From Terriglobia bacterium (GTDB lineage: Bacteria > Acidobacteriota > Terriglobia > Terriglobales > Acidobacteriaceae), in contig JAIQGF010000014.1 in assembly GCA_020072845.1 (NCBI GenBank), positions 1 to 64,000 on the forward strand: a DNA stretch of 64,000 nucleotides, in the 5' to 3' direction. Shown here one piece after another: positions 8,516-60,575 of the stretch; position 1 is the first letter of the stretch; each line of letters opens with the position of its first letter. The notes beneath the pieces are model-generated. The model made no database searches, was not told the origin of the DNA, and saw only the letters and a list, made by a program, of their open reading frames with translations. The position numbers and the translations under genes are program-made.

Positions 8516-8524
8516 GCTGCAAGT

Positions 8525-9154: not shown

Positions 9155-9264
9155 CTCATCCCTCGGCGCGAATCATCGCGCCGGCACCATGGTACCCGAG
9201 TGAGAGCCGCATCAACAGCGGTATTGACGGTGTTTTGGACCCGACCGCGACCGGCGTGTCGCGC

Positions 9265-9319
9265 GTCACACGCCACTGGTGACGGCGGATTCGCCCTCGC
9301 GTGATGTCGGCGGCATCAC
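9265..9319 (+). promoter_or_regulatory. Inverted repeats upstream of dsrA
   Basis: The 271-base gap between sirC and dsrA contains two inverted repeats: GTCAC-N9-GTGAC at 9265-9283 and GTGATG-TCGGCGG-CATCAC at 9301-9319, the second with perfect six-base arms. Both use the GTGA/TCAC half-site of CRP/FNR-family regulators but with wider spacing than the standard six bases. They end 107 bases before the dsrA start, a sensible place for control of the operon. No clear -35/-10 pair could be assigned. Confidence 0.35.
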
Positions 9320-9425
9320 ATCGGCGTTTGACCTCTATCACAGTATTGCCGCCCGTCCAGGCCTAGGCTCGGCTGTTAGAGGATTTGCGCCCGCACGGAT
9401 CCGGGCGCAGGCAAGGGAGAAGCCA

Positions 9426-10625: not shown

Positions 10626-11707
10626 CGACGGCAGCGAAAACTCCCCGCATCACCGATATTGGTCCGCCGCATTACGAAAAATTCCTGCCGCCGCTGGTGA
10701 AGAAGAACTACGGCCAATGGAAGTATCACGAAGTGCTGGCGCCGGGCGTGCTCTGCCATGTTGCCGAGTCGGGCGACCGGCTCTACACGGTGCGCGCCGC
10801 CACGCCGCGGCTGATGGCGGTGCAGACGCTGCGTAAGTTCGCTGACCTGGCGGACAAGTACTGCGGCGGGCACCTGCGGTTCACCAGCCGCAACAACATC
10901 GAGTTCCTGCTGGAAGACAAGAACAATATCGAGCCGCTGAAAAAAGATCTGGCAGCACTGGGATTTCCGGTAGGCGGGACGGCGAACTCGATCAGCAACG
11001 TGGTCCACACGCAGGGGTGGATCCACTGCCACTCGGCGGCCACCGATGCGTCCGGAATCGTGAAAGCGGTGATGGACGCGCTCTACGACCGCTTCACGCA
11101 CCACGACCTGCCGGCGAAGTTGCGCCTGGCGCTGGCCTGCTGCCTGAACATGTGCGGCGCGGTGCATTGCTCCGACATTGCCATCCTCGGCATCCATACG
11201 GTCCCGCCGAAGATCCAGCACGCCACGCTGCCCAAGGTCTGCGAGGTGCCGACGCTGATCGCATCCTGCCCCACGGGCGCGATCCGGCCGGCGACGTATG
11301 AGGGCAAGCCCTCGGTGGAGTTGATCGAGGAGCAGTGCATGTTCTGCGGCAACTGCTACACCGTGTGCCCGGCGATGCCGATGAACGATCCCGAGCACGA
11401 CGGGCTTTCGATCTGGGTGGGCGGCAAGGTGAGCAACGCGCGCAGCGCGCCCAGGTTCTCGAAACTGGCGGTCCCGTTTCTTCCCAACAATCCGCCGCGC
11501 TGGCCCGAGGTGGTGGATGCGGTGGTGAAGATCGTGGACGTGTACGCCGCGAACGCGCGTAAGTACGAACGTGTCGGCGAGTGGATCGAGCGCGTCGGCT
11601 GGCCGCGGTTCTTCCAGCTCACCGGGTTCGAGTTCACGCGCTACCACATTGACGACTTCAAGCATGCCGGGTTGACCTACGCGCGGTCGGCGCAGATCAA
11701 GTACTGA
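10622..11707 (+). CDS. dsrB: Dissimilatory sulfite reductase beta subunit
   Basis: A 361-residue partner of DsrA in the alpha2beta2 enzyme; DsrB holds the catalytically active siroheme. Visible are the substrate-side basic segment [13 protein letters not shown] (residues 87-99), the cluster/siroheme cysteines in [17 protein letters not shown] (171-187), CPTGAIRP (216-223), and the ferredoxin cysteines [12 protein letters not shown] (239-250). It is translationally coupled to dsrA and is followed 35 bases later by the dsrL-like gene. Confidence 0.97.
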
Positions 11708-11742
11708 CCGGGCGTGAGGCCCGCTGCGGCGGGAATGGGCTC

Positions 11743-12942: not shown

Positions 12943-12958
12943 GAGCGAGGTCAGAACC

Positions 12959-13276
12959 GTGCCGGTATTTGAAATCGAAGGACGGAAATACGAAGTGGAT
13001 GAAGACGGATTCCTGCAGGAGCCTGAACGCTGGAATGAAGACGTGGCCAAGGACTTTGCACAAACAGAAGCGGTCACCGACCTCACCGAGGGGCACTGGA
13101 AGGTGATCAATTACATCCGCAACTACTATGTCCAGTTCGGCATTGCGCCCATGGTGCGGAAGCTCTGCAAGGAGACGGGATACAAGCTCAACGAAATTTA
13201 CCAGCTCTTCCCGTCGGGCCCGGCCAAGGGTGCGTGCAAGCTGGCGGGACTGCCCAAACCAACGGGCTGCGTGTGA
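12959..13276 (+). CDS. dsrC: DsrC sulfur-carrier protein
   Basis: A 105-residue small protein that receives the sulfur atom from DsrAB as a trisulfide and is the substrate of DsrMKJOP. The flexible C-terminal arm has both essential cysteines, Cys93 (GACK) and Cys104 as the second-last residue (TGCV), separated by exactly ten residues, so it is a true DsrC and not a TusE or regulatory homolog. The start is GTG 12959. It lies between dsrL and the RsbRD-N gene with short gaps (16 and 4 bases). Confidence 0.96.
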   Translation: MPVFEIEGRKYEVDEDGFLQEPERWNEDVAKDFAQTEAVTDLTEGHWKVINYIRNYYVQFGIAPMVRKLCKETGYKLNEIYQLFPSGPAKGACKLAGLPKPTGCV

Positions 13277-13280
13277 TGGT

Positions 13281-13727
13281 ATGGCGAGCAGCGATGAACT
13301 TGTGGAGCAGTGGTTCGCGCAAACCCTGGAATCCTATCCGCACCTGGCCTCCCCGTTTCTGGCGTCGGAAAAGGATCCGTTCCGCAACCCCGTGGGCCAC
13401 GCGTTGCGCAGTGGCATGGCGATCCTGCTGCAGGAATTGCTCGGCAACATGGACGCCGCCAACATCGCGCCGGCACTGGACAAAATCGTGCGCCTTCGCG
13501 TGGTGCAGGATTTCACGCCCAGCGAAGCCGTTGGGTTTGTATTCCTGGTGCGCTCTATCCTGCTGGGAACAAATCCGCCAAGGCCGGCCATGATCGAGGC
13601 GCACATCGATCAGCTCGCGCTCATGGCCTTCGACCAGTATATGAAATGCCGCGAGCAGATTGCCGAGGTTCGAGCCAACGAAGCCGGGCGCAGATTGCGA
13701 GTACGGCCGGCGCTTCACCGCAAGTGA
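13281..13727 (+). CDS. RsbRD N-terminal-domain protein in the dsr operon
   Basis: A 148-residue all-helical protein. The sequence DELVEQWFAQTLESYP, EKDPFRNPVGHALRSG and VRLRVVQDFTPSEAVGFVFL is the pattern of the RsbRD N-terminal domain (RsbT co-antagonist type), a globin-like sensory fold. There is no STAS or kinase domain, so the protein is the sensory module alone. ATG 13281 lies four bases after the dsrC stop, and its own stop is ten bases before dsrM. Genes of this kind are found just upstream of dsrM in other sulfite reducers. Role unknown: sensing or assembly of the DsrMKJOP complex is an inference from position. Confidence 0.75.
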   Translation: MASSDELVEQWFAQTLESYPHLASPFLASEKDPFRNPVGHALRSGMAILLQELLGNMDAANIAPALDKIVRLRVVQDFTPSEAVGFVFLVRSILLGTNPPRPAMIEAHIDQLALMAFDQYMKCREQIAEVRANEAGRRLRVRPALHRK

Positions 13728-13737
13728 GGTAGAAGGA

Positions 13738-14748
13738 ATGCAGGCGGTCTATTCATTGGGCGCGGTCGGTGCGGTCATCGTTGCCGCCGCGCTGGCGGGA
13801 CAGGTGATCGGCGGGAATGCATGGATGTCAGCCGTCGCCTACGCCGGCTTTGCCGTCTTCCTCGCCGGCTTCTGCTACCGCGTGGTGCGGTGGGCAGCAG
13901 CGCCCGTACCCTTTCGCATTCCGACCACCTGCGGGCAGCAAAGGTCTCTGCCCTGGATCAAGAGCGCCGCGCTGGAGAACCCCTCAACCACGGGCGGCGT
14001 GCTGGGCCGCATGGCCCTTGAAGTCTTCCTCTTTCGCTCGCTGTTCCGCAACAACCAGACGCGGCTTGATCAGGGGCGCGCGATCTTCACCGAGCAAAAG
14101 TACCTCTGGCTGGCGGCGCTGGCTTTTCACTGGTCGTTACTGACCATTCTCGTTCGCCACCTGCGGCTGCTGGTGGAGCCGGTGCCCGCCGTGCTGCTGC
14201 GAATCGAACGCGTGGACGGATTTTTCCAACTCGGCGCGCCGCCGCTGTATCTCTCGGACCTCGTATTCGCGTGCGCGCTGGCTTACCTGCTGCTGCGCCG
14301 ATTCCAGGACCCGGTGGTCCGCTACATTTCCCAGTTCAGCGACTACTTCGCGCTGCTGGTGTTCATCGGCATCGCCGCATCCGGGATGCTCATGCGCTAC
14401 GTGACCCGCGTGGACGTGGTCGGCGTCAAGCAGTTCGCGCTCGGCCTGGCGGCGTTTCACCCGGTGCGTACGGCGGCGCTGGGTTCGGTGTTCGCGGTCC
14501 ACCTGGCGCTGATCAGCGTACTGGCGGCGTACTTCCCGTTCAGCAAGCTGATGCACATGGGCGGAGTGTTTCTCAGCCCGACGCGCAATCTGGCGAACAA
14601 CAACCGCGCGACGCGGCACATCAATCCGTGGAATTACCCGGTCAAGACCCACAGCTATGCGGAGTGGGAGGAAGAATTCCGGGACAAGTTGAGAGGAGCG
14701 AACCTTCCGCTCGAGGCCGACCATGCCACAAGAGCTTCTGCAGATTGA
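13738..14748 (+). CDS. dsrM: DsrM, membrane cytochrome b subunit of DsrMKJOP
   Basis: A 336-residue integral membrane protein that oxidises menaquinol and passes electrons via two hemes b to DsrK. Hydrophobic helices are visible at residues about 3-25, 32-50, 120-145, 165-195, 215-235 and 260-285. Histidines in ALAFHWSLLTILVRHLR and in AFHPVRT, FAVHLALIS and KLMHMGG are likely heme ligands, the arrangement of the NarI-like fold. ATG 13738 has a good ribosome site (GAGG ... GAAGGA). The C-terminus overlaps dsrK by 26 bases. Confidence 0.92.
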   Translation: MQAVYSLGAVGAVIVAAALAGQVIGGNAWMSAVAYAGFAVFLAGFCYRVVRWAAAPVPFRIPTTCGQQRSLPWIKSAALENPSTTGGVLGRMALEVFLFRSLFRNNQTRLDQGRAIFTEQKYLWLAALAFHWSLLTILVRHLRLLVEPVPAVLLRIERVDGFFQLGAPPLYLSDLVFACALAYLLLRRFQDPVVRYISQFSDYFALLVFIGIAASGMLMRYVTRVDVVGVKQFALGLAAFHPVRTAALGSVFAVHLALISVLAAYFPFSKLMHMGGVFLSPTRNLANNNRATRHINPWNYPVKTHSYAEWEEEFRDKLRGANLPLEADHATRASAD

Positions 14749-16318
14749 GGCGAGGAAGCCGGACGGTGACTGGAAGAACCCTGCGGTTCAGTTCCGCAAG
14801 GGCTTCTTCTGCTATGGCGCCGCGGCCAAGAACGTCCGCTACCTCGGTCTGCCGAACCCGCGTGAGTGGCAGCCCTTCGATGCCGATTGGAAACTTCCGC
14901 CGGACTGGAAACAGATTCTGCTGGCGGGCATGAAGGAGCGGCTGCAAAAGTACCGCTCGTTCCGGCTGTTCATGGACATCTGCGTGCGCTGCGGCGCCTG
15001 TGCCGACAAATGTCATTTCTACCTCGGCTCCAGCGACCCGAAGAACATGCCGGTGGTGCGCGCCGAGCTGATGCGTTCCGTGTACCGCCGGTATTTCACC
15101 CTGACCGGCCGCATCTTCGGCGCGCTCGCGGGCGGGCGCGAGCTGACCGAGGACGTTGTCAAAGAATGGTTCTTCTATTTCTACCAGTGCACCGAATGCC
15201 GCCGCTGTTCTGTGTTCTGCCCTTACGGCATTGATACCGCCGAGATCACCATGATCGGCCGCGAGTTGCTGAACCTGATCGGCTGCAACACCAACTGGGT
15301 GCTGGAACCGGCGGCGAACTGCCTGCGCACCGGCAATCACCTCGGCATCCAGCCGCACGGTTTCAAGGACAGCCTGGAATTCGCCGCCGACGAACTGGAA
15401 GAGATCACCGGCATACGCGTCGAGGTGCCCATCAATCGCAAGGGCGCGGAAATCCTGTTCGTCATGCCCTCGGCCGACTACTTCGCCGAGCCGCATTACT
15501 ACACCCTGCTCGGCTACATGATGCTGCTGCACGAGATCGGGCTGGATTTCACCTTCAGCGCCTTCGCCTCCGAGGGCGGCAACTTCGGGTTGTTCAGCTC
15601 GCACGAGCTGATGAAGCGCCTGAACGCGAAGGTGTACGAAGAAGCCCGGCGCCTGGGCGTGAAGTGGATCCTGGGCGGCGAGTGCGGCCACATGTGGCGC
15701 GTGCTCCACCAGTACATGGACACCATGAACGGCCCCGCCGATTTCCTGGAAGAGCCGGTCTCGCCGATCACGGGAACGAAGTTCGAGAACGCGCGCTCGA
15801 CGCGCATGGTGCACATCTGCGAGTTCTCCGCCGACCTGATCCACCACGGCAAGCTGCGGCTTGATCCGGCGCGCAACGACCGCTGGACCGTGACCTTCCA
15901 CGATTCCTGCAACCCGGCGCGTGCCATGGGCCTGCTGGAGGAGCCGCGCTACATCATCCGCAGCGCCTGCAACCGTTTCCATGAAATGCCGGAAAACACG
16001 ATTCGCGAGCAGACGTTTTGCTGCGGCAGCGGCGCCGGCCTGGGTACGGATGAAAACCTGGAAATGCGCCTGCGCGGCGGTTTCCCGCGCGCCAACGCCG
16101 TCAAGTACGTGAAGGAAAAGCATGGCGTCAACCTGCTGGCCTGCATTTGCGCCATCGACAAGGCGACGCTGCCGACGCTGATGGATTACTGGGTGCCGGG
16201 CGTTCAGGTCGCCGGCGTGCACGAGCTGCTCGGCAACGCGCTGGTCATGCGCGGCGAAAAAGTACGCACCACCGATTTGCGCGGCGAGCCGCTGGCGGCG
16301 GAGGTGATCCATGCGTGA
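14723..16318 (+). CDS. dsrK: DsrK, iron-sulfur catalytic subunit of DsrMKJOP
   Basis: A 531-residue cytoplasmic subunit thought to reduce the DsrC trisulfide. Two 4Fe-4S motifs are present: CVRCGACADKCHFYLG (residues about 87-102) and CTECRRCSVFCPYGID (about 156-171). The CCG-domain residues that carry the noncubane cluster follow: GGECGHMWR, HDSCNPARAMG, FCCGSGAGLG and CICAIDK. It begins inside dsrM and overlaps dsrJ by eight bases, so the three are tightly coupled. Confidence 0.95.
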   Translation: MPQELLQIEARKPDGDWKNPAVQFRKGFFCYGAAAKNVRYLGLPNPREWQPFDADWKLPPDWKQILLAGMKERLQKYRSFRLFMDICVRCGACADKCHFYLGSSDPKNMPVVRAELMRSVYRRYFTLTGRIFGALAGGRELTEDVVKEWFFYFYQCTECRRCSVFCPYGIDTAEITMIGRELLNLIGCNTNWVLEPAANCLRTGNHLGIQPHGFKDSLEFAADELEEITGIRVEVPINRKGAEILFVMPSADYFAEPHYYTLLGYMMLLHEIGLDFTFSAFASEGGNFGLFSSHELMKRLNAKVYEEARRLGVKWILGGECGHMWRVLHQYMDTMNGPADFLEEPVSPITGTKFENARSTRMVHICEFSADLIHHGKLRLDPARNDRWTVTFHDSCNPARAMGLLEEPRYIIRSACNRFHEMPENTIREQTFCCGSGAGLGTDENLEMRLRGGFPRANAVKYVKEKHGVNLLACICAIDKATLPTLMDYWVPGVQVAGVHELLGNALVMRGEKVRTTDLRGEPLAAEVIHA

Positions 16319-16712
16319 CCGTGTCCTGATCGCCGTCGGCCTGCTCCTGTTCGTCTCGCTGGTGACGTACCCCGTGTGGCATGCGGTCTATGCAAGAACC
16401 ACCACGGCAGGGCCGCAACTCAAACTGCCGCAGCAGTCGAAATCCTGCGTGGCGCCCGTGGCCCTCATGCGCGCCTCGCACATGAAGCTGCTCACCGACT
16501 GGCGCGAGGGCGCAGTGCGCGAGCGCCGCTTGGACTACACGTCGTACGACGGCAAGAAATACCGCGTCAATCTCTCCGGCACCTGTCTCGGCGAGTGCCA
16601 CACCAATAAAGGGGAGTTCTGCGATCGCTGCCACACCTACGCTGCCGTTTCAGGCCCGTACTGCTGGGACTGCCATGTGGACCCGGCCTCCGTAGCCCGG
16701 AGGACGCCATGA
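16311..16712 (+). CDS. dsrJ: DsrJ, triheme cytochrome c
   Basis: A 133-residue periplasmic cytochrome held by an uncleaved N-terminal helix (residues 5-27). Three heme attachment sites are seen: CLGECH (92-97, the wider C-x3-CH spacing), CDRCH (104-108) and CWDCH (118-122). Cys46 in SKSCVAP sits at the position of the unusual cysteine heme ligand known from DsrJ of Allochromatium vinosum, and the RASHMKLL segment is conserved. Its role in the complex is not settled in any organism. It overlaps dsrK and dsrO. Confidence 0.93.
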   Translation: MRDRVLIAVGLLLFVSLVTYPVWHAVYARTTTAGPQLKLPQQSKSCVAPVALMRASHMKLLTDWREGAVRERRLDYTSYDGKKYRVNLSGTCLGECHTNKGEFCDRCHTYAAVSGPYCWDCHVDPASVARRTP

Positions 16713-47469: not shown

Positions 47470-48463
47470 GGTTCTATTCTCGCGGTAAATTCCCGATCCC
47501 AAAAAGAAACATACGGTGGTTAATTGCGCACGTGGCTCGTTGACTCGCTTGTTGAACGGACGTAGCATGAAAGTGAAGTACAGGGCAGGGAGCGCCCCCA
47601 GGCGAGAATTGCGGTTCCGCCGCAAAAGCGAGCTTGGGGACCAGTACCGAATGCGGTTGTCTGGAGCTCCTCAATGTCTCGACTGACAGAAACCCGATCA
47701 CTTCCCACGATCGCGGGCGAGAATGATCATTTTTTTTTCATAAAGGGTGGTGACCAGAGCATGAATTGCGCCGGGGGCGCAATCTCGTGTGAGGTCGGGG
47801 TCTGGTCCGAGTTCGCTAGTCGTACTCCGGACGGCCCTTATATCTCGACGGCACAAAGTCTGATCTCTCCCAGCGGTCGTCCGATACGCGAACCAGGATT
47901 GGCAGCGCCTAGGGCCCAAGCAAAGAGTTTGTGCGGGCGGCAACCTTGTTGCGGTTGCGATTGAGGGTATGCGATTTCGGCCCCTGTGAGGATTTTCGAG
48001 CGGTAGTTTCGGCTGCGTAGGTGCTTCGCAAACAGCCGAAGGACATCTGCGTCGGGGCTCGCCCCGAGCCCAGTGCTTCAGTCTCGGAGGCGCCTGATGT
48101 CTTCTGCGTCGGAAACCCGTTCACCGCCTATCGCCCCAGATACCGATCACGCATCTTCAGAGCCTAACGGAATGCCCTGGTTGCATTGTTGTGCTTGCAA
48201 TCTTAGGTGCGCCATTCCTCCGTTCGATGGCTACCTCGCCTACGGCATCAACTGCCTGTCGAAGCCTGAGGACCTGAACCCGGAGCAGTGGCTACAAACT
48301 GATGTTCAGCAATGGCTACATTAGCCAGGAGTACCGAACTTATTTACTTAATTGGCGACGCAAATCACCGGCATACATAACCGATCTTCACGGCGTTGGC
48401 CGGGGTTGACGCGGCGCTTGCAACGCGCGTCTCCGGCCAGCGCCGAGGAAGAGGGGATCCAAC
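47470..48463. other. Long region without a clear gene
   Basis: About one kilobase with no gene that I can support. A 75-codon plus-strand frame (ATG 48097 to 48324) has four cysteines and ends PEQWLQTDVQQWLH, but shows no ribosome site or known family. The region just before 48464 should hold the promoter of the flx-hdr operon; GAGGAAGAGGGG precedes the first start. Confidence 0.35.
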
Positions 48464-49033
48464 ATGGGTACGGAGAATGAAGAGAACAACGGCGGGCTCG
48501 TGCAGATCCAGGACGCAGCGGCAGAGATGGTTGCCCTGGATGAAGCGACCGCTAATTGGGCGGTAACTTTCGCGCACGGCCCTGGCTTTGAGCCGAAGAT
48601 TTTGGCTTTTGTGTGCAACTGGTGCACCTACACAGGAGCCGATCTGGCGGGTACCAGCCGGCTGAAAATGGCACCGAACGTACGGGTTGTCCGCCTGCCT
48701 TGCAGCAGTCGCGTGAACCCGCTCTTTGTCATGAAAGCGCTCGAGCGCGGCGCTGATGGTGTTATCGTCAGTGGTTGCCATCCCGGAGATTGCCACTACA
48801 GTACGGGCAACTACTACGCGCGACGCCGCCTTGCCATTCTGCATGACCTCCTTGCGTTTCTGGGCGTGGACCCTCATCGTGTGACCTTTTCCTGGGTATC
48901 CGCCGCCGAGGGAGGAAAGTGGCAACAACTGGTGAACGAAACCACGGAACGTGTCCGGCAGCTTGGACCGCACCCGAGGAACCAGCGTAGTTCCACCGGG
49001 GGGGTGGACACTTACCATGAAGGAGCTGCGTGA
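48464..49033 (+). CDS. flxD: FlxD/MvhD-type iron-sulfur adaptor protein
   Basis: A 189-residue protein with the MvhD fold, which passes electrons between a flavoprotein or hydrogenase module and HdrA. Family segments are ILAFVCNWCTYTGADLAGTS, VRVVRLPCSSRVNPLFVM, ERGADGVIVSGCHPGDCHYS and NYYARRRLAILHDLL; the cysteines in NWC, PCS, GCHPGDC bind the 2Fe-2S cluster. It is the first gene of a seven-gene operon and overlaps the next gene by 17 bases. An N-terminal extension of about 40 residues precedes the fold. Confidence 0.9.
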   Translation: MGTENEENNGGLVQIQDAAAEMVALDEATANWAVTFAHGPGFEPKILAFVCNWCTYTGADLAGTSRLKMAPNVRVVRLPCSSRVNPLFVMKALERGADGVIVSGCHPGDCHYSTGNYYARRRLAILHDLLAFLGVDPHRVTFSWVSAAEGGKWQQLVNETTERVRQLGPHPRNQRSSTGGVDTYHEGAA

Positions 49034-49889
49034 GCTTGCTCAAAAGCTTCTAATCGACGGCTCGGTCAAAGTTGTAATTGGATACGAAGAGGGCCCGCGC
49101 GGAGTACGCCCCGTCTTCGTCACCGAACCGGCGCAAGCGGAGAAGCTCATCTTCGACACGCGCTGCGTACACAACCTGGCCGCCTATCTGAACCCGCGGC
49201 GGCGCCAGATCGCCAAGCTTGGCAAACCTGCCGTCGTGGTCAAAGGGTGCGACGCGCGCGCTGTTGCCGGCCTGATTCGTGAGGCGCAGATCAAGCGCGA
49301 AGACGTGGTAATCATCGCTGTCCGTTGCGGCGGCGTCGTGCGGGACCCTGCCCAGAGCGCTGCGTTGACCGTCGACAACGTCTCCGATCGTTGTGCCGGC
49401 TGCAACGTCCGCGAGCCAAAGCTTTTCGATCATCTCCTCGGGCCGCTGCCACCGGCTCCACCACAAAGTACGCGGCGTGAGGACAAGCTCGCAGAGCTGG
49501 CAGGAATGACGCCCGCCGAGCGTTGGGCCTTCTGGAGCGGACACCTGGATCGTTGCATCCGCTGCCACGCCTGCCGGGAAGTATGCCCCATGTGCTTCTG
49601 TGTGCGCTGTACGGCGGATAGGAGCCGGCCCCAGTGGATTGAGTGTTCGCCCACGCCGCAGAGCAATCGTTCCTGGCAATTGATGCGGGTCTTGCATCAG
49701 GCCGGCCGGTGCGTGGATTGCCTGGAATGTGAACGTGCCTGCCCGGCAAATATTCCGCTGGGGCTCCTTAACAAATATGTTGCCCAGGTTGTGGAGCAAC
49801 GTTTTGGTTACAGAAGCTGCGATGACCCGACGGTACCGGCGCCTCTGGGAGTTTTTTCTACCGATGACCAACAGGAGTTCATCCAGTGA
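49017..49889 (+). CDS. flxC: FlxC-like iron-sulfur protein
   Basis: A 290-residue protein. The first part (to about residue 150) resembles F420-hydrogenase beta / Flx-type domains (GKPAVVVKGCDARAVAGLIR, VIIAVRCGGVVRD, DRCAGCNVREPKLFDHLLG). The second part carries two ferredoxin motifs: CIRCHACREVCPMCFCVRC and CVDCLECERACPANIPLGLL. It would be an electron-relay subunit between FlxA/FlxB and FlxD/HdrA. It starts at ATG 49017 inside the flxD end and overlaps flxB by four bases (GTGA). Confidence 0.8.
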   Translation: MKELRELAQKLLIDGSVKVVIGYEEGPRGVRPVFVTEPAQAEKLIFDTRCVHNLAAYLNPRRRQIAKLGKPAVVVKGCDARAVAGLIREAQIKREDVVIIAVRCGGVVRDPAQSAALTVDNVSDRCAGCNVREPKLFDHLLGPLPPAPPQSTRREDKLAELAGMTPAERWAFWSGHLDRCIRCHACREVCPMCFCVRCTADRSRPQWIECSPTPQSNRSWQLMRVLHQAGRCVDCLECERACPANIPLGLLNKYVAQVVEQRFGYRSCDDPTVPAPLGVFSTDDQQEFIQ

Positions 49890-50956
49890 CGGCGACAATT
49901 TTGTCCCCATCGGATTTATCGGTGCTCGTGGCGAGTCTGGTCGCGGATGGGATTCGCGTGATCGCACCGGTGCGTGCCAAGGATGCTCCCGAACGCGCCG
50001 ACTACCTGCCCATTAAGCGTCTCGAGGAAGCCGATTTTGCCGGCCCGCTGCCGCGACGGTCGCTCAAGGAATTCTTCCTCCCTCCATCCGAAGTTCTTTT
50101 GTGCTATCGGCTGCGGAAAAATGACGTCGAGATTGAGGAAATTCCAATCACATCTCCGCCGAAGGTGCTGCTCGGTGTCCGGCCATGCGACGCTGCCGGA
50201 ATTGAGATCCTCGACCGCGTCATGGGTTGGGATTATCGCGATGAGCTATGGTTCGGGCGGCGTGAAGCGACCACCATTGTCAGTCTCGCCTGCACCGTCG
50301 CTGATGACTCCTGCTTTTGCACGGCCGTGGGGCTCGGACCGGATTCCACCAAGGGTTCCGATGTGCTGCTTGCTCCGCTGGAGGGAAGCTTTCTTGCCCA
50401 GGCCGTTACCCCGAAAGGAGAGGCGCTGTTGAGGAGACAACCGCTCGCGCCGGCAGCCGAAGCCACCGACATCCAGAAGGCAGAGGCCCTCGCGAGCACA
50501 ACGCAGAAAAAGGTGGCGAAAAACCTGCCCACTGTTCCCGATGAAATGCCCGCTTGGCTGGCGGGGAAATTCGACCATGACGTTTGGAAGTCGATTGCCT
50601 TGCGATGCCACGGCTGCGGTATCTGCGCCGCGATCTGTCCAACGTGCCACTGCTTCGACATCGTTGACGAGCACGAGCACTACGATCGAGGCGTACGCCG
50701 CCGGAACTGGGACTCGTGCCAAACCACGAAATTTACGCTGCACGCGTCCAACTACAATCCCCGAAGTTCGCAGGTCGAACGGTTCCGCCAGCGAGTCATG
50801 CACAAGTTCTCGATCTACCCGCGCCGATTCGGCGCGTTCTTGTGCACCGGCTGTGGCCGCTGTTCTCGCGGCTGCCCCGCCGGCATGAACCTTCCCGAAG
50901 TCGTGGGCCAGCTGATTGAGCTTGCGAGGGCGGAGTCCCAGGGGGGCAGCAGATGA
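49886..50956 (+). CDS. flxB: FlxB-like two-cluster iron-sulfur protein (hydrogenase/sulfite reductase beta type)
   Basis: A 356-residue protein of the family that includes sulfhydrogenase beta subunits, AsrA and FlxB. The N-terminal two thirds has LGVRPCDAAGIEILDRVM and VSLACTVADDSCFCTAVG. Ferredoxin motifs near the C-terminus are CHGCGICAAICPTCHCF and CTGCGRCSRGCPAGMNL. Role: relay from the FlxA flavin to FlxC/FlxD. It starts with GTG and overlaps both neighbours by four bases. Confidence 0.85.
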   Translation: MTATILSPSDLSVLVASLVADGIRVIAPVRAKDAPERADYLPIKRLEEADFAGPLPRRSLKEFFLPPSEVLLCYRLRKNDVEIEEIPITSPPKVLLGVRPCDAAGIEILDRVMGWDYRDELWFGRREATTIVSLACTVADDSCFCTAVGLGPDSTKGSDVLLAPLEGSFLAQAVTPKGEALLRRQPLAPAAEATDIQKAEALASTTQKKVAKNLPTVPDEMPAWLAGKFDHDVWKSIALRCHGCGICAAICPTCHCFDIVDEHEHYDRGVRRRNWDSCQTTKFTLHASNYNPRSSQVERFRQRVMHKFSIYPRRFGAFLCTGCGRCSRGCPAGMNLPEVVGQLIELARAESQGGSR

Positions 50957-51783
50957 ACCTCTATCAGCCACGCCTGATGCGCATCCAGGAAATGAGGGAC
51001 GAGACTCCTGACATTCGCACGTACAAGTTGACCTTCCATGAACCGAAGGTCGCGGAGAGGTTCGACTTTTTCGCCGGGCAATTCGGCGAATACTCCGTCT
51101 TTGGCGAAGGAGAGAGCACGTTCTGCATCGCCTCACCGCCCACGCGCAAGGGGTACATCGAATGCAGCGTCAAGGCTGTCGGGAAGGTGACGTGGGCCTT
51201 GCGCCGGCTGGGTGTGGGAGACACGGTGGGTTTTCGCGGCCCATATGGGAATTCTTTCCCGATCGAACAGATGAAGGGGCACTCGATCGTGTTTATCGCC
51301 GGCGGTATCGGCATCGCGCCAGTGCGCAGCCTGATCTGGAACGTCCTGGATATTCGCGACCAGTTCAAGGATGTGACGATCGTTTATGGGGCGCGCACGG
51401 TGGCCGATCTTGTCTACAAGCAAGAACTGGAGGAGTGGTCGAAACGGACAGACTTGAAGCTGTGGGAAGCGGTAGATCCAGGCGGCCAGACGCCAGACTG
51501 GAAGGGCGAAGTCGCCCTCGTTCCCGTGCTACTGGAAAAGGCTGCGCCTGCGGCCGCCGACAACTTCGCGGTCATCTGCGGCCCGCCCATCATGATCAAG
51601 TTTACGCTCCCGGTACTCACCAAACTGGGGTTCCCGGACGACCGCATCTATACCACGCTCGAAAACCGCATGAAGTGCGGAATCGGCAAATGCGGGCGTT
51701 GCAATGTCGGGTCCGTCTACGTTTGCAAAGACGGGCCGGTGTTCACGGCCGCCCAGATCAGGAGCTTGCCGAAGGATTTTTGA
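50953..51783 (+). CDS. flxA: FlxA-like NAD(P)H-oxidising FAD/2Fe-2S protein
   Basis: A 276-residue flavoprotein of the ferredoxin-NADP reductase / dihydroorotate dehydrogenase PyrK type, also called AsrB or sulfhydrogenase gamma. FAD part: GQFGEYSVFGEGESTFCIAS; NAD part: GHSIVFIAGGIGIAPVRSLI and FAVICGPPIMIKF; C-terminal 2Fe-2S loop: MKCGIGKCGRCNVGSVYVC. It should be the entry point for NADH electrons into the complex. Its stop is 61 bases before hdrA. Confidence 0.9.
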   Translation: MNLYQPRLMRIQEMRDETPDIRTYKLTFHEPKVAERFDFFAGQFGEYSVFGEGESTFCIASPPTRKGYIECSVKAVGKVTWALRRLGVGDTVGFRGPYGNSFPIEQMKGHSIVFIAGGIGIAPVRSLIWNVLDIRDQFKDVTIVYGARTVADLVYKQELEEWSKRTDLKLWEAVDPGGQTPDWKGEVALVPVLLEKAAPAAADNFAVICGPPIMIKFTLPVLTKLGFPDDRIYTTLENRMKCGIGKCGRCNVGSVYVCKDGPVFTAAQIRSLPKDF

Positions 51784-51844
51784 CGCTGCTATCGAGGAGC
51801 ACGAGGAGGAGAGGGTTCATGGGTTGGGGGAAAGGAGAGGGTCC

Positions 51845-53665
51845 ATGAGTTCCGAGTCGCGGATCGGGGTTTACCTTTGTCATCCCGCCGGCAGCGATCA
51901 AGGCGTGGTGGACCTTGAGGCAGTCGCGGAATATGCGGCGCAGTTGGCTGGTGTCATGGTGGCGCGGATTATGCCCGTCCCTCGGCGTCTGGACCCCGAG
52001 GGACTCGCCGCCGAGATGCGCCAGGCCCGCTTGAACGCCGTGGTCCTGGCCGGCGACTCGCCCGGGTTCTACAAGCCCGCGTTCGCACGCGCGCTTTCTC
52101 TGGCGGGCGGCGACCCGGAGCAGGTCCGGCTGGCTTCTTTCCGCGAACATGGAGCTGTGTCTGACCGCACTGCTGGACGCGCTAAGGCGGTGCTTGCGTG
52201 CGCGGTGTATGGCGTCCCATTTACGCTCGCGGCTGAACCGGGGTGCGTGCCTGTCCAGACCGACACGCTGGTCATCGGAGCTGGGATAGCCGGCATCCAG
52301 GCTGCTTTGGAGATCGCGGATGCGGGTTACAAGGTTCACTTGATCGAACGCGCGGCAACCATTGGTGGTCACATGGCGATGTTCGACAAGACATTTCCCA
52401 CCCTCGACTGTGCCGCCTGCATTCTCACGCCCAAGATGGTGGTCGCCGGCAAGCACCCCAACATCCATCTCATGGTCCTGTCTGAAGTGCAGGAGGTCTC
52501 GGGCGGGCCGGGCGCATACCAGGTGAAAGTGCTCAAGCATACCCCGCGAGTTGATGCCGAGGCATGCACGGCGTGTGGCGAGTGCGCGCAGTTCTGTCCC
52601 GTCTCAGTGGCCAGCGAATTCGACGCCGGTATAGCGACGCGCAAAGCGATCTATCTTTCGTTCCCGCAGGCCGTCCCCAACGCTTACGCCGTCGACCCGC
52701 GTTCCTGTCTCTGGATCCAGAGCGACGGCAAGAAATGCGGCGCATGCGTCAAGAAGTGCGACAAGGGCGCGGTTTGCCTGGATGCCAAAGATGAAATTGT
52801 CGAACTCAACGTCGGCAACATCATCGTTGCGACGGGTTACGATGTCCTCGATGCGCGACGGGTTGAGCGCTATGGGTATGGGATCTATCCCAACGTTCTC
52901 ACCGCACTTGAGTTCGAACGCCTGAGCAATGCCTCCGGGCCGACCGCCGGCAAGATCGTTCTGAAGACCAAGCGGCAAAATAAAAGAACGAAGACGGACG
53001 AGTGGGTCTTGGATGCTGACGGACCCAAGCCTAAGGCGGTGGCGATCATTCATTGTGTGGGGTCTCGCGATCACAATTACAACCCTTATTGTTCGCGCGT
53101 CTGCTGCATGTACTCCCTGAAGTTCGCGCACCTCGTCCGGGAGAAGCTGCCGGAGGCGAAGTGCTACGAGTACTACATTGACATGCGCGCCTTCGGAAAA
53201 GGCTACGAAGAGTTCTTCGAGCGCATTAAGGAAGAGGGCGTGTGCGTCGTGCGTGGCCGCTCGGCCAAGGTCATCGAACGTGACCGGCAGATGTTTGTCC
53301 GCGGCGAAGACATCGTGGCGGACCAGTTGACGGAAGTGCCGGTCGACATGGTTCTGCTCGCGGTGGGAATGACGCCGGCTGCCGGCTCGGTGAAGCTGGC
53401 GGAAATGCTCGGCATCGACCGGGAAAGCGACGCCTGGTTCAACGAACTGAACTACAACACCGAACCGAACATGACCGAAAGAGGTGGGATCTTCGTGGCC
53501 GGGGTGTGCCAGGGACCGAAGGACATCCCGGACACGGTGGCACAGGCTTCAGCGGCTGCGGCGAAGGTGCTGCGCGCCATTGTTGGCGGCAAAGTCCAGC
53601 AGGGCCGGGCTGACCTCACTGTGTCGGAGATCGAGGCCAAGGCGCAAGTGTTGGCGCAACTCTGA
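51845..53665 (+). CDS. hdrA: HdrA-type flavin/iron-sulfur protein, first copy
   Basis: A 606-residue HdrA/QmoA-like protein. FAD motif VIGAGIAGIQAALEIADAG (residues 143-161) and the HdrA cluster motif DCAACILTPKM (188-198) are present, followed by two 4Fe-4S sites, CTACGECAQFCPVS and CGACVKKCDKGAVC, and the SRVCCMYSLKFAH and GVCQGPKDIPDTVAQASAAA segments typical of HdrA. The N-terminal domain, which carries cysteines for a cluster in normal HdrA, is there but keeps only one of them (YLCHPAG). The start ATG 51845 follows AAAGGAGAGGGT. It may pair with the second HdrA at 54.9 kb. Confidence 0.88.
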   Translation: MSSESRIGVYLCHPAGSDQGVVDLEAVAEYAAQLAGVMVARIMPVPRRLDPEGLAAEMRQARLNAVVLAGDSPGFYKPAFARALSLAGGDPEQVRLASFREHGAVSDRTAGRAKAVLACAVYGVPFTLAAEPGCVPVQTDTLVIGAGIAGIQAALEIADAGYKVHLIERAATIGGHMAMFDKTFPTLDCAACILTPKMVVAGKHPNIHLMVLSEVQEVSGGPGAYQVKVLKHTPRVDAEACTACGECAQFCPVSVASEFDAGIATRKAIYLSFPQAVPNAYAVDPRSCLWIQSDGKKCGACVKKCDKGAVCLDAKDEIVELNVGNIIVATGYDVLDARRVERYGYGIYPNVLTALEFERLSNASGPTAGKIVLKTKRQNKRTKTDEWVLDADGPKPKAVAIIHCVGSRDHNYNPYCSRVCCMYSLKFAHLVREKLPEAKCYEYYIDMRAFGKGYEEFFERIKEEGVCVVRGRSAKVIERDRQMFVRGEDIVADQLTEVPVDMVLLAVGMTPAAGSVKLAEMLGIDRESDAWFNELNYNTEPNMTERGGIFVAGVCQGPKDIPDTVAQASAAAAKVLRAIVGGKVQQGRADLTVSEIEAKAQVLAQL

Positions 53666-53682
53666 TCGGAGAAGGGACAATT

Positions 53683-54840
53683 ATGGCAGCTCGCGTGAAC
53701 CCAATGTTCATCGGGGACCTGGAACGCTATGGCGCGGAGGACGTCGCCAAGTGCTACCACTGCGGTAATTGCACCGCTATCTGCCCGTTTTCCCAGGAGC
53801 CATTCCTTTTTCCGCGGCGCAGCATGCGCTATTTGCAGATGGGCCTGGAGAAGCCGCTCCGCTCCTCGCTTGAGCCCTGGCTTTGCTATTACTGTGGCGA
53901 GTGTTCGGAGCAGTGCCCGCGTGAAGCCGAGCCCGGCGAGACCATGATGAGCATCCGGCGCTGGCTCATTTCCCAGTATGACTTCACGGGCCTGTCCAAG
54001 TTGTTTTACCGCTCCTGGAAGGCGGAGCTTGCGGCCATAGCGATCGTGGCCATTCTCACCGCTGTCGGCTTTCTGGCCTACGGCTTCCATTTTGGGGGCG
54101 GAAGCTTATCCGTCTACGACGGCCCGAAGGCATTCCTTCCCGCGGAGTCGGTGCACATCTTCGACTGGATCATGGGCACGACTCTTTTCCTGCTGCTGGC
54201 CATCAACGCTGCGCGTATGTGGCATTGGACGATGCGCGGCGAAGGCGCTCCCCGGGTCTCTGCCTGGAGTTATGTCCGCTGTCTGCCCCTGCTGGTGGTG
54301 CATTTCTTCACGCAGAAACGATACCGCGAGTGCGAAAACAGGCGACCTTGGGCACTCCACCTTGTGCTCATGCTCAGCTACGTGACCATGCTGGTGCTGA
54401 TCATGTTTTTCCTGCGGGCCATGCAGTACGGACCGGCGATACGCTGGCAGGCGCACATCTTCGGCTATGCCGCTTCCCTTGGGCTGGTTGTCACCAGCGT
54501 CGCGGCACTCCAAGGACGCCTGAAGAAGAACACGCCCGCACACCGACATTCGCACGAGTCCGACTGGATGTTCCTCGGCTTGCTCATTTTTGTGGCGCTG
54601 ACGGGAATCCTCCAGCACGTGCTGCACCGGGCGGGACTGCCGGCGGCGGCGAATGTCACCTACGTAGTGCACCTCCTGGGCGTGGTTCCGATGCTGACGC
54701 TGGAGGTGCCGTTCAGCAAGTGGTCACACCTCGCCTATCGGCCACTCGCGATGTATTTCGCGGCGTTACAGCAGGAGGCCTACGCGACGGCGCAGGCAGG
54801 GGCTCGGGTCGAAGCGGCGAAGCGGCACCTGGTGGCGTAA
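53683..54840 (+). CDS. qmoC: QmoC-like fusion of HdrC and a cytochrome b membrane domain
   Basis: A 385-residue protein. Residues about 20-85 are an HdrC-type ferredoxin with CYHCGNCTAICPFS and CYYCGECSEQCPREAEPGE. Then come about six membrane helices of the HdrE/NarI type (TTLFLLLAINAARMWHW, LHLVLMLSYVTMLVLIMFF, AASLGLVVTSVAAL, WMFLGLLIFVALTGIL, VVHLLGVVPMLTLEV) with histidines for heme b. QmoC joins cytoplasmic Hdr/Qmo proteins to the quinone pool. No CCG cysteine domain (HdrB) is present. There are 17-base gaps to both HdrA genes. Confidence 0.88.
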   Translation: MAARVNPMFIGDLERYGAEDVAKCYHCGNCTAICPFSQEPFLFPRRSMRYLQMGLEKPLRSSLEPWLCYYCGECSEQCPREAEPGETMMSIRRWLISQYDFTGLSKLFYRSWKAELAAIAIVAILTAVGFLAYGFHFGGGSLSVYDGPKAFLPAESVHIFDWIMGTTLFLLLAINAARMWHWTMRGEGAPRVSAWSYVRCLPLLVVHFFTQKRYRECENRRPWALHLVLMLSYVTMLVLIMFFLRAMQYGPAIRWQAHIFGYAASLGLVVTSVAALQGRLKKNTPAHRHSHESDWMFLGLLIFVALTGILQHVLHRAGLPAAANVTYVVHLLGVVPMLTLEVPFSKWSHLAYRPLAMYFAALQQEAYATAQAGARVEAAKRHLVA

Positions 54841-54856
54841 GGGTTCAGGAGACGAT

Positions 54857-56566
54857 ATGCAAGGCGAGCGGATCGGCGTTTACATCTGTAACTGCGGCAC
54901 CAACATCGCCAAAATGGTCGACCCGGATGCGGTTGCCGAAGCGGCAAAGGAGATTCCAGGTGTCGCCAGCGCCCGCTCGTACAAATACATGTGCTCCAAT
55001 CCCGGCCAGGAAATGATTGCCCAGGATATCCGGGATCTTTCCCTGACCCGCGTGGTGGTATCGGCATGCAGCCCGCGCATGCACGAAGGCACGTTCCGCA
55101 AAGTGCTGGAACGGGCAGGTATCAATCCCTACTTGCTGGAGATGGCCAACATACGGGAGCAGTGCAGTTGGATCCACGAAGACAAGGTGGCGGCAACCGA
55201 GAAAGCCAAGGACCTGACGCGTGCCGCCATTCAGCGAGTGAAATACCACGAACCGCTGGAGAGCCGTTCGGTGGCGATGTGCCCCGCCACCCTGGTGCTC
55301 GGTGGCGGCATTGCGGGCCTGACGGTTGCGCTCGAACTGGCCGAGGCCGGACAACAGGTGTACTTAGTCGAGCGCGACCGCCAACTCGGCGGCAACGTGG
55401 CGCGGATCGACTCCACCTTTCCTTACCTCGATTCCGCCCGCGACATTATCAGGGAACACATTATTCGGGTCGGCCACCATTCACGCATCCGCATTTTTCT
55501 AGAAAGTGAATTGGTTGAGTTGAAGGGATATGTCGGTGACTTCCATCCGAAAATCAAAACCGACGCCGGCGAGGTGGTCGAACTTAGCGTCGGCGCGGTG
55601 GTGGTCTGCACCGGCTTCCGGGAATTCGACCCGGCCCGCATCGAGGAGTACGGCTACGGCCGCCTGCCGAACGTGATCACGTCGTTCGAGTTGGAGGCGA
55701 TGCTGCGAAGCGGGCGGATCGAAACTCGCGACGGTAAGCGCCCGCGCTACATTTCGATCATCCACTGCGTGGGTAGCCGCAGCTCGCAGTTCCATCGCTA
55801 TTGCTCACGCGTCTGCTGTGCGACCGCGCTCAAATACGCACACCAGATCAAGTCGGCGATTCCGGACGCATATGTTTCCGACCTGTACATCGACATGCAC
55901 GCCTTCGGCAAAGGCTGCGAAGACCTCTACAAGAAGAGCGCCGAAGAAAAAACCCTGTTCCTGATGTACGCCAAGAACCAGGCGCCGTCGATCCGCTTCG
56001 CGAGCCCGGGGGACAACTGCGGCATGTTGATACAGATGAGGGAAGTGCTATCGGGCAAGGAAATCGAGATTCCGTCGGATTTGGTGGTGCTGATGGTCGG
56101 CATGGAAGCGCGCGCGGATTCGGGCAAGGTCGCGCGCCTGGTCAACATCAGTCGTGATAAGGACGGCTGGTTCATCGAGAGCCACCCCAAGCTGGATCCG
56201 GTCGCCACCACGACCGACGGCATCTTTATCGCCGGCGCTTGTCAGGGGCCCAAGGACATTCCCGACACCGTATCCCAGGCGCGGGCGGCGGCGGCACGCA
56301 TCCTGGCAAAGATTGCGCAAGGAAAAATCGCGGTCGACGCGGTGTTTTCCGAGGTCGAAGACCAGTTCTGTTCGGGATGTCGCACGTGTGGCGCGGTTTG
56401 CCCTTATGGGGCCATCGAGTACGACGAGAAAACCGGCCATAGCCGCGTCATCAGCGCGGTTTGCAAAGCCTGCGGATGCTGCGTCGCCGCCTGCCCCTCA
56501 GGAGCAATCAAGATACGCCACTCTACGGACGAGCAGATTTACGCCCAACTCGAAGCCGTGCTCTGA
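54857..56566 (+). CDS. hdrA: HdrA-type flavin/iron-sulfur protein, second copy
   Basis: A 569-residue HdrA homolog. The full N-terminal domain is present with cysteines 11, 13, 46, 71 and 103 (YICNCGTNIAKMVD, YMCSNPGQ, VSACSPRMHEGTF, NIREQCSWIHED). The FAD motif is LVLGGGIAGLTVALELAEAG. The motif that in HdrA reads DCxxCILTPxM is changed to LDSARDIIREHI, with no cysteine. The C-terminus has two 4Fe-4S sites, CSGCRTCGAVCPYG and CKACGCCVAACPSG. It is complementary to the first copy in which cluster sites are kept. Last gene of the operon. Confidence 0.88.
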   Translation: MQGERIGVYICNCGTNIAKMVDPDAVAEAAKEIPGVASARSYKYMCSNPGQEMIAQDIRDLSLTRVVVSACSPRMHEGTFRKVLERAGINPYLLEMANIREQCSWIHEDKVAATEKAKDLTRAAIQRVKYHEPLESRSVAMCPATLVLGGGIAGLTVALELAEAGQQVYLVERDRQLGGNVARIDSTFPYLDSARDIIREHIIRVGHHSRIRIFLESELVELKGYVGDFHPKIKTDAGEVVELSVGAVVVCTGFREFDPARIEEYGYGRLPNVITSFELEAMLRSGRIETRDGKRPRYISIIHCVGSRSSQFHRYCSRVCCATALKYAHQIKSAIPDAYVSDLYIDMHAFGKGCEDLYKKSAEEKTLFLMYAKNQAPSIRFASPGDNCGMLIQMREVLSGKEIEIPSDLVVLMVGMEARADSGKVARLVNISRDKDGWFIESHPKLDPVATTTDGIFIAGACQGPKDIPDTVSQARAAAARILAKIAQGKIAVDAVFSEVEDQFCSGCRTCGAVCPYGAIEYDEKTGHSRVISAVCKACGCCVAACPSGAIKIRHSTDEQIYAQLEAVL

Positions 56567-56830
56567 ATTGTTAGCGACCATCCTCCCATCCACACGCCCG
56601 CCCAACGAGGATACCCTCAATGAGTTTACGCACCCGACTGATCCCGTTTTCGCCGAACTCCTTTGCCAGGTCCGGGCGACGCAGACCAGTGTGGTCCGCA
56701 AAAACCTCATCAGCCCTGGCGTGTATGAGAACACACGACTTCTGATCGATGGCCGTCAATCTTGTTCCGCTTGCGGCAGGCCCTGGATCACGGCTGACGC
56801 GAACCCGATTAGCCGCTCCAATGCCGGGCG
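56567..56830. other. Non-coding or decayed stretch after the hdr operon
   Basis: No gene supported on either strand. It continues into the broken end of the ERCC4 nuclease gene and probably contains the other side of the deletion that truncated it. Confidence 0.35.
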
Positions 56831-57579: not shown

Positions 57580-57655
<76 letters not shown>

Positions 57656-57731: not shown

Positions 57732-57760
57732 TTGACCCGGATTTGGAGCCATGTTATACA
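57732..57760 (+). promoter_or_regulatory. Sigma70-type promoter of the pyrophosphatase gene, with long leader
   Basis: TTGACC at 57732-57737, a 17-base spacer, and TATACA at 57755-57760: one mismatch to consensus in the -35 box, two in the -10 box, ideal spacing. Transcription would begin near 57767, leaving about 245 bases before the start codon. That GC-rich leader can form stems and holds no supported gene; I do not recognise a known riboswitch in it. Confidence 0.7.
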
Positions 57761-58010
57761 TTCCTCTCTTGTGCTCCGCGAAACTGGCGGGCGCAAGCAA
57801 CCCCGCGGTCCCATCCCGGCCGGCAGCAGGCGAAATGGGGCCATGAGCGCGGCCAAACGCATAGCTCCCGCCTTGACGTGGAAGCGCGCATCCGGGTGGT
57901 ATCAGGTACGAGCAACCGCTCTCCCTTCGCCGCAGGCCTGGACGGAGAGAAAGCGAGGATGCGGCCCGATTCGTCGTCCTATTCATGTGAATACCGTTTG
58001 GAGGACTTTT

Positions 58011-60575
<2,565 letters not shown>

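What the first reader, a model, noticed from the sequence alone, without database searches (positions are those of the whole stretch)
48464..56566. Flx - HdrA - QmoC-like - HdrA hybrid complex without HdrB
Seven tightly spaced genes encode FlxD, FlxC, FlxB, FlxA, an HdrA, a QmoC-like membrane subunit and a second HdrA. In known systems Flx works with soluble HdrABC, or QmoA/QmoB with QmoC. Here the Flx NADH module is joined to a membrane Qmo-like module and the HdrB (CCG disulfide) subunit is absent. The expected reaction would therefore link NADH, a low-potential carrier and quinone rather than a heterodisulfide. Seen: gene order and motifs. Inferred: one complex, its reaction.
Basis: partly seen in the sequence, partly recalled or inferred. 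Interest (0 to 1): 0.82.

Follow-up and report, generated by a model that had tools for sequence, protein, structure and literature searches.

The report
Hybrid NADH-to-quinone electron-splitting enzyme operon
An acidobacterium carries an operon in which the NADH-oxidising half of one known electron-splitting enzyme has replaced the hydrogenase half of another, giving what is probably a membrane enzyme that splits NADH electrons between quinone and ferredoxin.

Summary
Seven co-oriented genes (48464-56566) encode FlxD-C-B-A, an HdrA, a QmoC-like membrane subunit and a second HdrA; a profile search found no HdrB in the genome. The operon is a chimera. Its HdrA1-QmoC-HdrA2 core belongs to a family that usually carries a [NiFe]-hydrogenase (MvhD-G-A): 47 of the 78 closest loci in a public-genome scan. 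Its Flx half, FlxD included, groups with ordinary HdrCBA-FlxDCBA operons; one relative's genome holds both donor types. Three trees support this, and I found the seven-gene order in four acidobacterial genomes. The two HdrAs have complementary iron-sulfur losses in 53 of 53 loci, a pattern published elsewhere as HdrA heterodimers, and keep two residues cited as marks of a bifurcating flavin. Best reading: NADH in through Flx; electrons split to menaquinone through QmoC and to ferredoxin through HdrA1, the net reaction of EtfABCX by an unrelated machine. Assembly, bifurcation and direction are inferred. A link to Dsr is not supported: two of the four genomes gave no dsrA. The hydrogenase version has been proposed in print for Archaeoglobi; my searches of open-licence papers did not show the Flx version.

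The parts
48464..49033 (+). flxD: MvhD/FlpD-type iron-sulfur subunit, predicted link between Flx and HdrA
   Evidence: PF02662 E 7.7e-53; groups with FlxD of HdrABC operons, apart from the 51 hydrogenase-type MvhDs in the tree, 98/87 support
49017..49889 (+). flxC: iron-sulfur subunit (ATG 49017; overlaps flxD by 17 bp)
   Evidence: 56-64% identical to FlxC of six acidobacterial Flx-HdrABC operons
49886..50956 (+). flxB: HydB/AsrA-like iron-sulfur subunit (GTG start)
   Evidence: NF040833 E 1.4e-42, below cut-off; 4 bp overlaps on both sides
50953..51783 (+). flxA: NAD(P)H/FAD reductase subunit with DHODB-type Fe-S domain
   Evidence: PF00175 E 1.4e-18, PF10418 E 5.4e-11
51845..53665 (+). hdrA1: half-HdrA keeping the inserted ferredoxin domain and the Cys194/Cys197 pair; N-terminal cluster ligands and C-terminal ferredoxin domain lost
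   Evidence: alignment to 5odc/8rvu HdrA; losses and E356/K409 equivalents counted in 53 loci
53683..54840 (+). qmoC-like: HdrC-type Fe-S domain plus a membrane domain, predicted b-heme/quinone module
   Evidence: NF038018 E 1e-55, below cut-off; model pLDDT 76.6 with hydrophobic helices; His226, 330, 349 in 53 of 53 loci
54857..56566 (+). hdrA2: half-HdrA keeping the N-terminal cluster and C-terminal 2x[4Fe-4S] domain; inserted ferredoxin domain and Cys194/Cys197 pair lost
   Evidence: alignment to PDB HdrA; counts in 53 loci

Best explanation
The operon encodes one membrane-bound flavin enzyme, a chimera of two known ones. NADH is oxidised by FlxA/B/C. Electrons pass through FlxD into the C-terminal ferredoxin domain of HdrA2 and reach flavin in an HdrA1-HdrA2 heterodimer. 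There they split. The high-potential pair goes through the Fe-S domain of QmoC to menaquinone in the membrane. The low-potential pair goes through the interface cluster (HdrA2 N-terminal cysteines plus the Cys197-equivalent of HdrA1) and the inserted ferredoxin domain of HdrA1 to soluble ferredoxin. Net: 2 NADH + MQ + Fd(ox) -> 2 NAD+ + MQH2 + Fd(red). Shown: gene set, order, conserved residues and domains, ancestry of the two halves. Inferred: assembly into one complex, heme and quinone binding, the kind of quinone, bifurcation, and its direction.
For: Same order in 4 genomes. Core tree: the four Flx-type loci form one clade (SH-aLRT 100) among hydrogenase-type loci, next to L108/L155 (98). 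FlxD tree: they sit with Flx-HdrABC FlxD, apart from the 51 MvhDs (98/87). FlxABC tree: they sit within Flx-HdrABC operons (100/99). One relative, G340, holds both donor types (L087, L243). Complementary cluster losses and the E356/K409 equivalents in 53 of 53 loci. PMC9012536 (section 15, first of two parts read) gives the electron path and interprets such complementarity in ANME HdrAs as heterodimers. PMC9430772 (passages) gives E356/K409 as used to tell bifurcating flavins. The core's usual partner is a [NiFe]-hydrogenase with intact nickel motifs, and the hydrogenase version is published as a hypothesis of H2 bifurcation to MQ and Fd (PMC10945360, passages). No [NiFe]-hydrogenase and no HdrB in the own genome. 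Energetics, my arithmetic with E values from the PMC10734219 abstract in a listing (Fd about -450, NADH -320, MQ -74 mV): about -22 kJ/mol.
Against: No biochemistry. The QmoC model has only weak fold matches, none at E <= 0.001; EtfD and NarI lead with E 0.15 and 0.45. E356/K409 are in both HdrAs, so which flavin bifurcates is open. No clear ferredoxin consumer was found in the own genome: no nifH over the cut-off; POR-family enzymes are present but could equally supply reduced ferredoxin. The kind of quinone, and whether an ETF-type bifurcating enzyme is also present, were not tested. Only four genomes are known to carry the chimera, and one of them (G500) also has HdrB and a hydrogenase in another operon (L255).
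Confidence: 0.55

Rival explanations
1. Same complex, opposite direction: it confurcates electrons from reduced ferredoxin and menaquinol to make NADH.
For: Confurcation by HdrA complexes is discussed in PMC9012536 (passages). POR-family enzymes are present in all 4 genomes and could supply reduced ferredoxin.
Against: Uphill by about 22 kJ/mol at the potentials used in the best explanation, though cell ratios could reverse it.
Confidence: 0.15
2. A non-bifurcating NADH:menaquinone oxidoreductase: Flx feeds QmoC through the HdrA pair and no ferredoxin takes part.
For: The simplest use of the chain; non-bifurcating HdrA complexes exist (PMC9430772, passages).
Against: All eight cysteines of the inserted ferredoxin domain in HdrA1, four N-terminal cysteines of HdrA2, the Cys197-equivalent in HdrA1 and E356/K409 are kept in 53 of 53 loci; a plain NADH:quinone chain would not need the low-potential arm.
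Confidence: 0.2
3. A Qmo-like or Flx-Hdr-like complex of dissimilatory sulfur metabolism, serving AprAB or DsrC.
For: The window carries dsrAB, dsrC, dsrM, dsrK and dsrJ, and relatives of its subunits occur in Qmo and Flx-Hdr systems.
Against: aprA not found (whose control genomes contain no APS reductase over the cut-off); HdrB, the disulfide subunit, absent; dsrA not found in 2 of 4 genomes with the operon; congeners G001 and G003 have dsrA but not this core.
Confidence: 0.05
4. Two separate complexes that merely share an operon: Flx working with an HdrABC and the core with another donor.
For: The halves usually occur apart; G500 has HdrB and a hydrogenase elsewhere (L255).
Against: The own genome has no HdrB for Flx and no [NiFe]-hydrogenase for the core; one order in 4 genomes, with small gaps in the window.
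Confidence: 0.05

Closest known systems
MvhAGD-HdrA-QmoC-HdrA cluster (proposed in 'Ca. Methanoglobus', PMC10945360; its cited source Buessecker 2023 was not held)
   Same: Same kinds of core genes (two HdrA, QmoC, MvhD); in bacterial hydrogenase-type loci the core proteins are up to 67-71% identical to the window's
   Different: [NiFe]-hydrogenase input there; here FlxABC, with a FlxD of different ancestry. I compared bacterial loci, not the Archaeoglobi cluster itself
FlxABCD-HdrABC (Ramos 2015; recalled, seen here only as a citation)
   Same: FlxD-C-B-A order and proteins, FlxA and FlxD up to 73-74% identical in acidobacterial operons
   Different: One full HdrA, HdrB and soluble HdrC there; here two half-HdrAs, a membrane QmoC and no HdrB
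QmoABC, types I and II (PMC10504309, passages and section 9)
   Same: Two HdrA-type subunits plus QmoC; type II is described as closer to HdrA and present also without Dsr/Apr
   Different: QmoB carries an MvhD-like part in the canonical locus L042, here a separate FlxD; no aprA found; QmoC below the family cut-off. Type II sequences themselves were not compared
EtfABCX/FixABCX (PMC10734219, start of abstract in a listing)
   Same: Same predicted net reaction: NADH to menaquinone plus ferredoxin
   Different: No ETF hit among the Pfam matches of the seven proteins; unrelated machine
Tandem HdrA heterodimers of ANME archaea (PMC9012536, section 15, part 1)
   Same: Complementary loss of Cys197 and N-terminal domain between tandem HdrAs
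   Different: Described there mostly with HdrBC/FdhAB; a text search of that paper found no Qmo or Flx

Membership tests
FlxABCD-HdrABC | FlxA, B, C, D present in order | tested here: met
FlxABCD-HdrABC | HdrB beside it | tested here: not met
   none at the locus or in the genome by profile, with three positive controls; present in 18 of 19 Flx-HdrABC loci examined, the other ends at a contig end
FlxABCD-HdrABC | single full-length HdrA | tested here: not met
   two half-HdrAs
QmoABC | QmoC at the NCBIfam cut-off | tested here: not met
   190 of 300 bits
QmoABC | two HdrA-type subunits plus QmoC | tested here: met
QmoABC | partner AprAB in the genome | tested here: not met
   aprA in 0 of 4 genomes incl. 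own; the control set had no genome over the cut-off, so no positive control
QmoABC type II | groups with type II Qmo in a tree | not tested
   reference sequences not at hand
Mvh-HdrA-QmoC-HdrA | HdrA1-QmoC-HdrA2 core of common ancestry | tested here: met
   core tree, bacterial loci only
Mvh-HdrA-QmoC-HdrA | [NiFe]-hydrogenase MvhG/MvhA input | tested here: not met
   none at the locus; no PF00374 match in G000
Mvh-HdrA-QmoC-HdrA | MvhD of the hydrogenase family | tested here: not met
   FlxD tree
bifurcating HdrA | E356 and K409 equivalents | tested here: met
   both HdrAs, 53 of 53 loci
bifurcating HdrA | bifurcation shown by assay or spectroscopy | not testable with these tools
   needs protein
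EtfABCX/FixABCX | ETF alpha/beta subunits | tested here: not met
   no ETF Pfam hit in the seven proteins

The most novel reading that the evidence does not exclude
A second, ETF-independent machine for NADH-driven reduction of both menaquinone and ferredoxin, made by swapping the hydrogenase of an Mvh-HdrA-QmoC-HdrA complex for the NADH module of Flx-HdrABC. The HdrA-QmoC-HdrA core would then be a general membrane-bound bifurcating chassis with exchangeable electron-input modules.
Probability: 0.5. Interest if true: 0.75.

Novelty: new variant of a known kind. Interest (0 to 1): 0.62.

Why it matters
It shows input-module exchange on an HdrA core, with both donor operon types still present in one related genome, so the swap can be traced in sequence. 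If the predicted reaction is right, some acidobacteria could make reduced ferredoxin from NADH at the expense of quinone by an Hdr-type enzyme, which would change how their energy budgets are drawn. It also shows that the membrane HdrA-QmoC-HdrA core, discussed in the papers I saw for Archaeoglobi and in Qmo form for sulfur metabolism, occurs with hydrogenase in Bacteroidota, Acidobacteriota, Actinomycetota and other phyla.

Tried and rejected
Rejected: Qmo for AprAB (aprA not found); Dsr/DsrC partner; nitrogen fixation as the general purpose (nifH over the cut-off in G501 only of 6 genomes). An apparent Flx plus hydrogenase plus QmoC locus in G493 (L103) has a different order and an HdrA with a NuoG-like N-terminus, so it was not counted as the same operon.

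Led nowhere: the QmoC model and its fold search gave only weak EtfD/NarI matches; repeats at the operon edges gave nothing convincing. Type II Qmo reference sequences, structure of the complex and expression data were not available. Ten literature searches showed no Flx version; they cover open-licence PMC papers only, I opened passages or sections of 11 of the papers listed, none in full, and Ramos 2015 and Appel 2021 were not read.

Rows dropped: core tree, L098 and L174 (56 of 58 kept); FlxD tree, 4 of 72 grouped loci without a usable FlxD; FlxABC tree, L254, and L259 not put in (21 rows). Residue counts use 53 of these 58 loci, those over 90% covered and without L098. In one search, 30 of 396 genomes matched, two being G000 and G002; I examined loci of 14 of the other 28, mostly the better matches.

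Errors of mine: the first HdrB reference was read in the wrong frame and replaced; my FlxC and HdrA1 references start one codon after the ATG (corrected). A first hydrogenase-motif pattern that required Arg matched 21 of 49; the motif with Arg or Lys is in 50 of 50.
Full report
What is there. The window is contig C14:1-64000 of a 4.23-Mb genome rated 100% complete. Its phylum is Acidobacteriota: a relative that the tool calls 'same phylum' (G363:C184, 41489 bases) matches a record titled Acidobacteria (L114, JALOKP010000019.1, 41489 bases), and their core proteins are identical in the tree. Seven + strand genes run from 48464 to 56566: flxD, flxC, flxB, flxA, hdrA1, qmoC-like, hdrA2. With starts corrected to ATG 49017 for flxC and ATG 51845 for hdrA1, the junctions are overlaps of 17, 4 and 4 bp, then gaps of 61, 17 and 16 bp. 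The window also carries dsrA, dsrB, dsrC, dsrM, dsrK, dsrJ and a second DsrK-like gene. A gene that I recognise as a membrane pyrophosphatase lies downstream at 57732-60575 (no family search was run on it).

No HdrB. A profile of four acidobacterial HdrBs finds full-length HdrB in the control genomes G139, G211 and G340 (E 4.2e-113 or better), but in the own genome only 49 of 292 positions of a 696-aa protein (E 9.9e-5); G002 and G501 likewise give only weak, partial pieces. G500 has an HdrB (E 3.9e-73), which lies in an Mvh-HdrABC operon (L255). Six CCG hits in the own genome fall in four proteins: GlcF-like, LdhH-like, weakly TfrB-like, DsrK-like; this search did not list the main DsrK, so it is not exhaustive. 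The own genome has one QmoC-type match, no aprA match (no positive control among the control genomes) and no [NiFe]-hydrogenase match. G500 and G501 do have [NiFe]-hydrogenases elsewhere.

Distribution of the core. In 396 Acidobacteriota genomes a QmoC at least 55% identical to the window's occurs in 10: G000, G002 and eight others. In the eight, the genes found are HdrA1-QmoC-HdrA2-MvhD-MvhG, with MvhA in seven and a contig end in one. Pfam shows the added genes to be [NiFe]-hydrogenase small and large subunits in the loci tested (L089, L092, L093). The 47 are Bacteroidota (30), Acidobacteriota (5), Actinomycetota (4), Aminicenantes (3), Krumholzibacteriota (2), Sumerlaeota, Myxococcota and Chlorobiota (1 each). 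Hydrogenase large subunits keep the I-C-G-V-C motif in 50 of 50 and the DPCxxC-type motif in 49 of 49; one tested matches VhuA best, below its cut-off. The two further Flx-type loci are L107 (Granulicella sp. bog_404 MAG) and L109 (uncultured Acidobacteria I3b_bin-068).

Distribution of the Flx half. FlxC is found in 30 of 396 Acidobacteriota genomes and in 7 of 399 genomes of the class at a stricter threshold. I examined 19 loci outside the four: 18 have HdrB and an HdrC-like match with HdrA near Flx, and one (L274) ends at a contig end. G340 holds both an Mvh-type core (L087) and a Flx-HdrABC operon (L243).

Ancestry. Core tree (HdrA1+QmoC+HdrA2, 56 rows, 1530 columns): the four Flx-type loci are one clade (SH-aLRT 100) next to L108/L155 (98) among hydrogenase-type loci (quick method, midpoint root, so nesting assumes that the root does not lie on the Flx branch). 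FlxD tree (68 rows, only 128 columns): the four lie with the 13 Flx-HdrABC FlxDs, separated from the 51 hydrogenase-type MvhDs at 98/87; the four themselves join at 93/97. FlxABC tree (21 rows, 898 columns): the four are a clade (100/100) inside a set of ten with six Flx-HdrABC operons (100/99); two long branches elsewhere were flagged. Identities agree: FlxD up to 74% to Flx-HdrABC against 63% to MvhD; HdrA1 up to 68% to hydrogenase-type against 43% to Flx-HdrABC HdrA. The simplest account is one fusion in which flxDCBA replaced mvhDGA.

Anatomy. Against solved HdrA (5odc, 8rvu; [quoted passage not shown] HdrA2 keeps the N-terminal cysteines and the C-terminal domain but lacks the insert and that pair. 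In 53 loci (4 Flx-type, 49 hydrogenase-type): HdrA1 keeps all eight insert cysteines and the Cys pair in 53 of 53, has cysteine at three N-terminal ligand positions in 0 of 53 and at the first in 32 of 53, and has no ferredoxin motif behind the core in 53 of 53. HdrA2 keeps four N-terminal cysteines in 53 of 53 and the fifth in 43, has the Cys pair in 0 of 53, no ferredoxin motif in its first 330 residues in 53 of 53, and two behind it in 53 of 53. E356 and K409 equivalents are in both proteins in 53 of 53. In QmoC, His226, 330 and 349 are in 53 of 53, His291 in 52, His312 in 51; which of them bind heme is not established.

Mechanism. PMC9012536 (section 15, first of two parts read) describes electrons entering HdrA from MvhD through the C-terminal domain, splitting at FAD, leaving to HdrBC by the thioredoxin-reductase-domain cluster, and to ferredoxin through a cluster made of N-terminal cysteines plus Cys197 of the partner and then the inserted domain; it reads complementary losses in tandem HdrAs as heterodimers. 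Applied here, electrons can enter only through HdrA2 and leave to ferredoxin only through HdrA1, with QmoC replacing HdrBC as the high-potential exit. PMC9430772 (passages) cites E356/K409 as used to tell bifurcating from non-bifurcating flavins. PMC10945360 (passages) proposes H2 bifurcation to menaquinone and ferredoxin for a cluster of MvhAGD, two HdrA and QmoC. With NADH as donor the predicted reaction is that of EtfABCX (PMC10734219, start of abstract), about -22 kJ/mol by my arithmetic at the potentials quoted there. Bifurcation, direction, heme and quinone binding are inferred.

Against a sulfur role. dsrA over its cut-off was found in 7 of 18 genomes examined: the window's genus (G000-G003), G041, G443 and G382. 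It was not found in G500 and G501, the genomes of L107 and L109, whose completeness I do not know. G001 and G003 have dsrA but not this core: their QmoC-type matches are a cluster of another order and a weak hit.

Recent history. Between the window and G002, homology covers 47478-56638 (94.4%); the flanks fetched (about 4 kb before and 6.7 kb after) do not align with the window apart from one 39-bp stretch. flxD, flxC and flxB have dS 0.48-0.53, like dsrA, dsrB and a 123-codon piece of the gene at 11743 in the same pair (0.51-0.53), but flxA to hdrA2 have dS 0.008-0.033, with the change near 50.6 kb. This looks like recent exchange of the flxA-hdrA2 part between species; a mis-binned or mis-assembled contig cannot be excluded.

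Novelty. The hydrogenase version is in print as a hypothesis for Archaeoglobi. Ten searches of open-licence papers showed no description of a Flx version; I opened parts of 11 of the papers listed, and subscription papers were not searched. I rate it a new variant of a known kind.

Noticed in passing
window 47478-56638: The operon is an island shared with G002 in unrelated fetched surroundings; flxA-hdrA2 has dS 0.008-0.033 while flxDCB and dsrAB have about 0.5, with a sharp change near 50.6 kb, suggesting recent exchange between species.
   Followed up: partly
window 57581-57655: A tRNA-Asn gene (- strand) lies about 0.9 kb past the right edge of the shared island, a possible integration site; no convincing repeats were found at the edges.
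   Followed up: partly
window 6914-16712: Dsr genes (DsrK-like, dsrA, dsrB, dsrC, dsrM, dsrK, dsrJ) in a genome without an aprA match: probably a sulfite rather than sulfate reducer. The gene at 11743-12942 is a short NAD(P)-binding protein, perhaps a reduced DsrL.
   Followed up: partly
L041 10747-15327 (G054): A QmoC followed by a 1526-aa protein joining a GltD/NfnB-like NADPH domain to HdrA sequences, and a separate MvhD: another input module beside a QmoC.
   Followed up: no
L103 (G493): QmoC beside FlxA/FlxB-like and MvhG/MvhA-like genes (possibly a group 3b hydrogenase; recalled) and a large HdrA with a NuoG/FeFe-hydrogenase-like N-terminus.
   Followed up: partly
L119, L124, L125, L171, L184: Another recurring order, MvhD-like, HdrA, HdrA, QmoC, in Actinomycetota, Verrucomicrobiota and an unnamed bacterium, with FlxD-like proteins only 24-32% identical to the window's.
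   Followed up: no
L177 (Candidatus Methanoperedens): Two QmoC-like genes beside a large HdrA, a second HdrA, two MvhD-like genes and a distant FlxC-like protein: an unusual archaeal relative.
   Followed up: no
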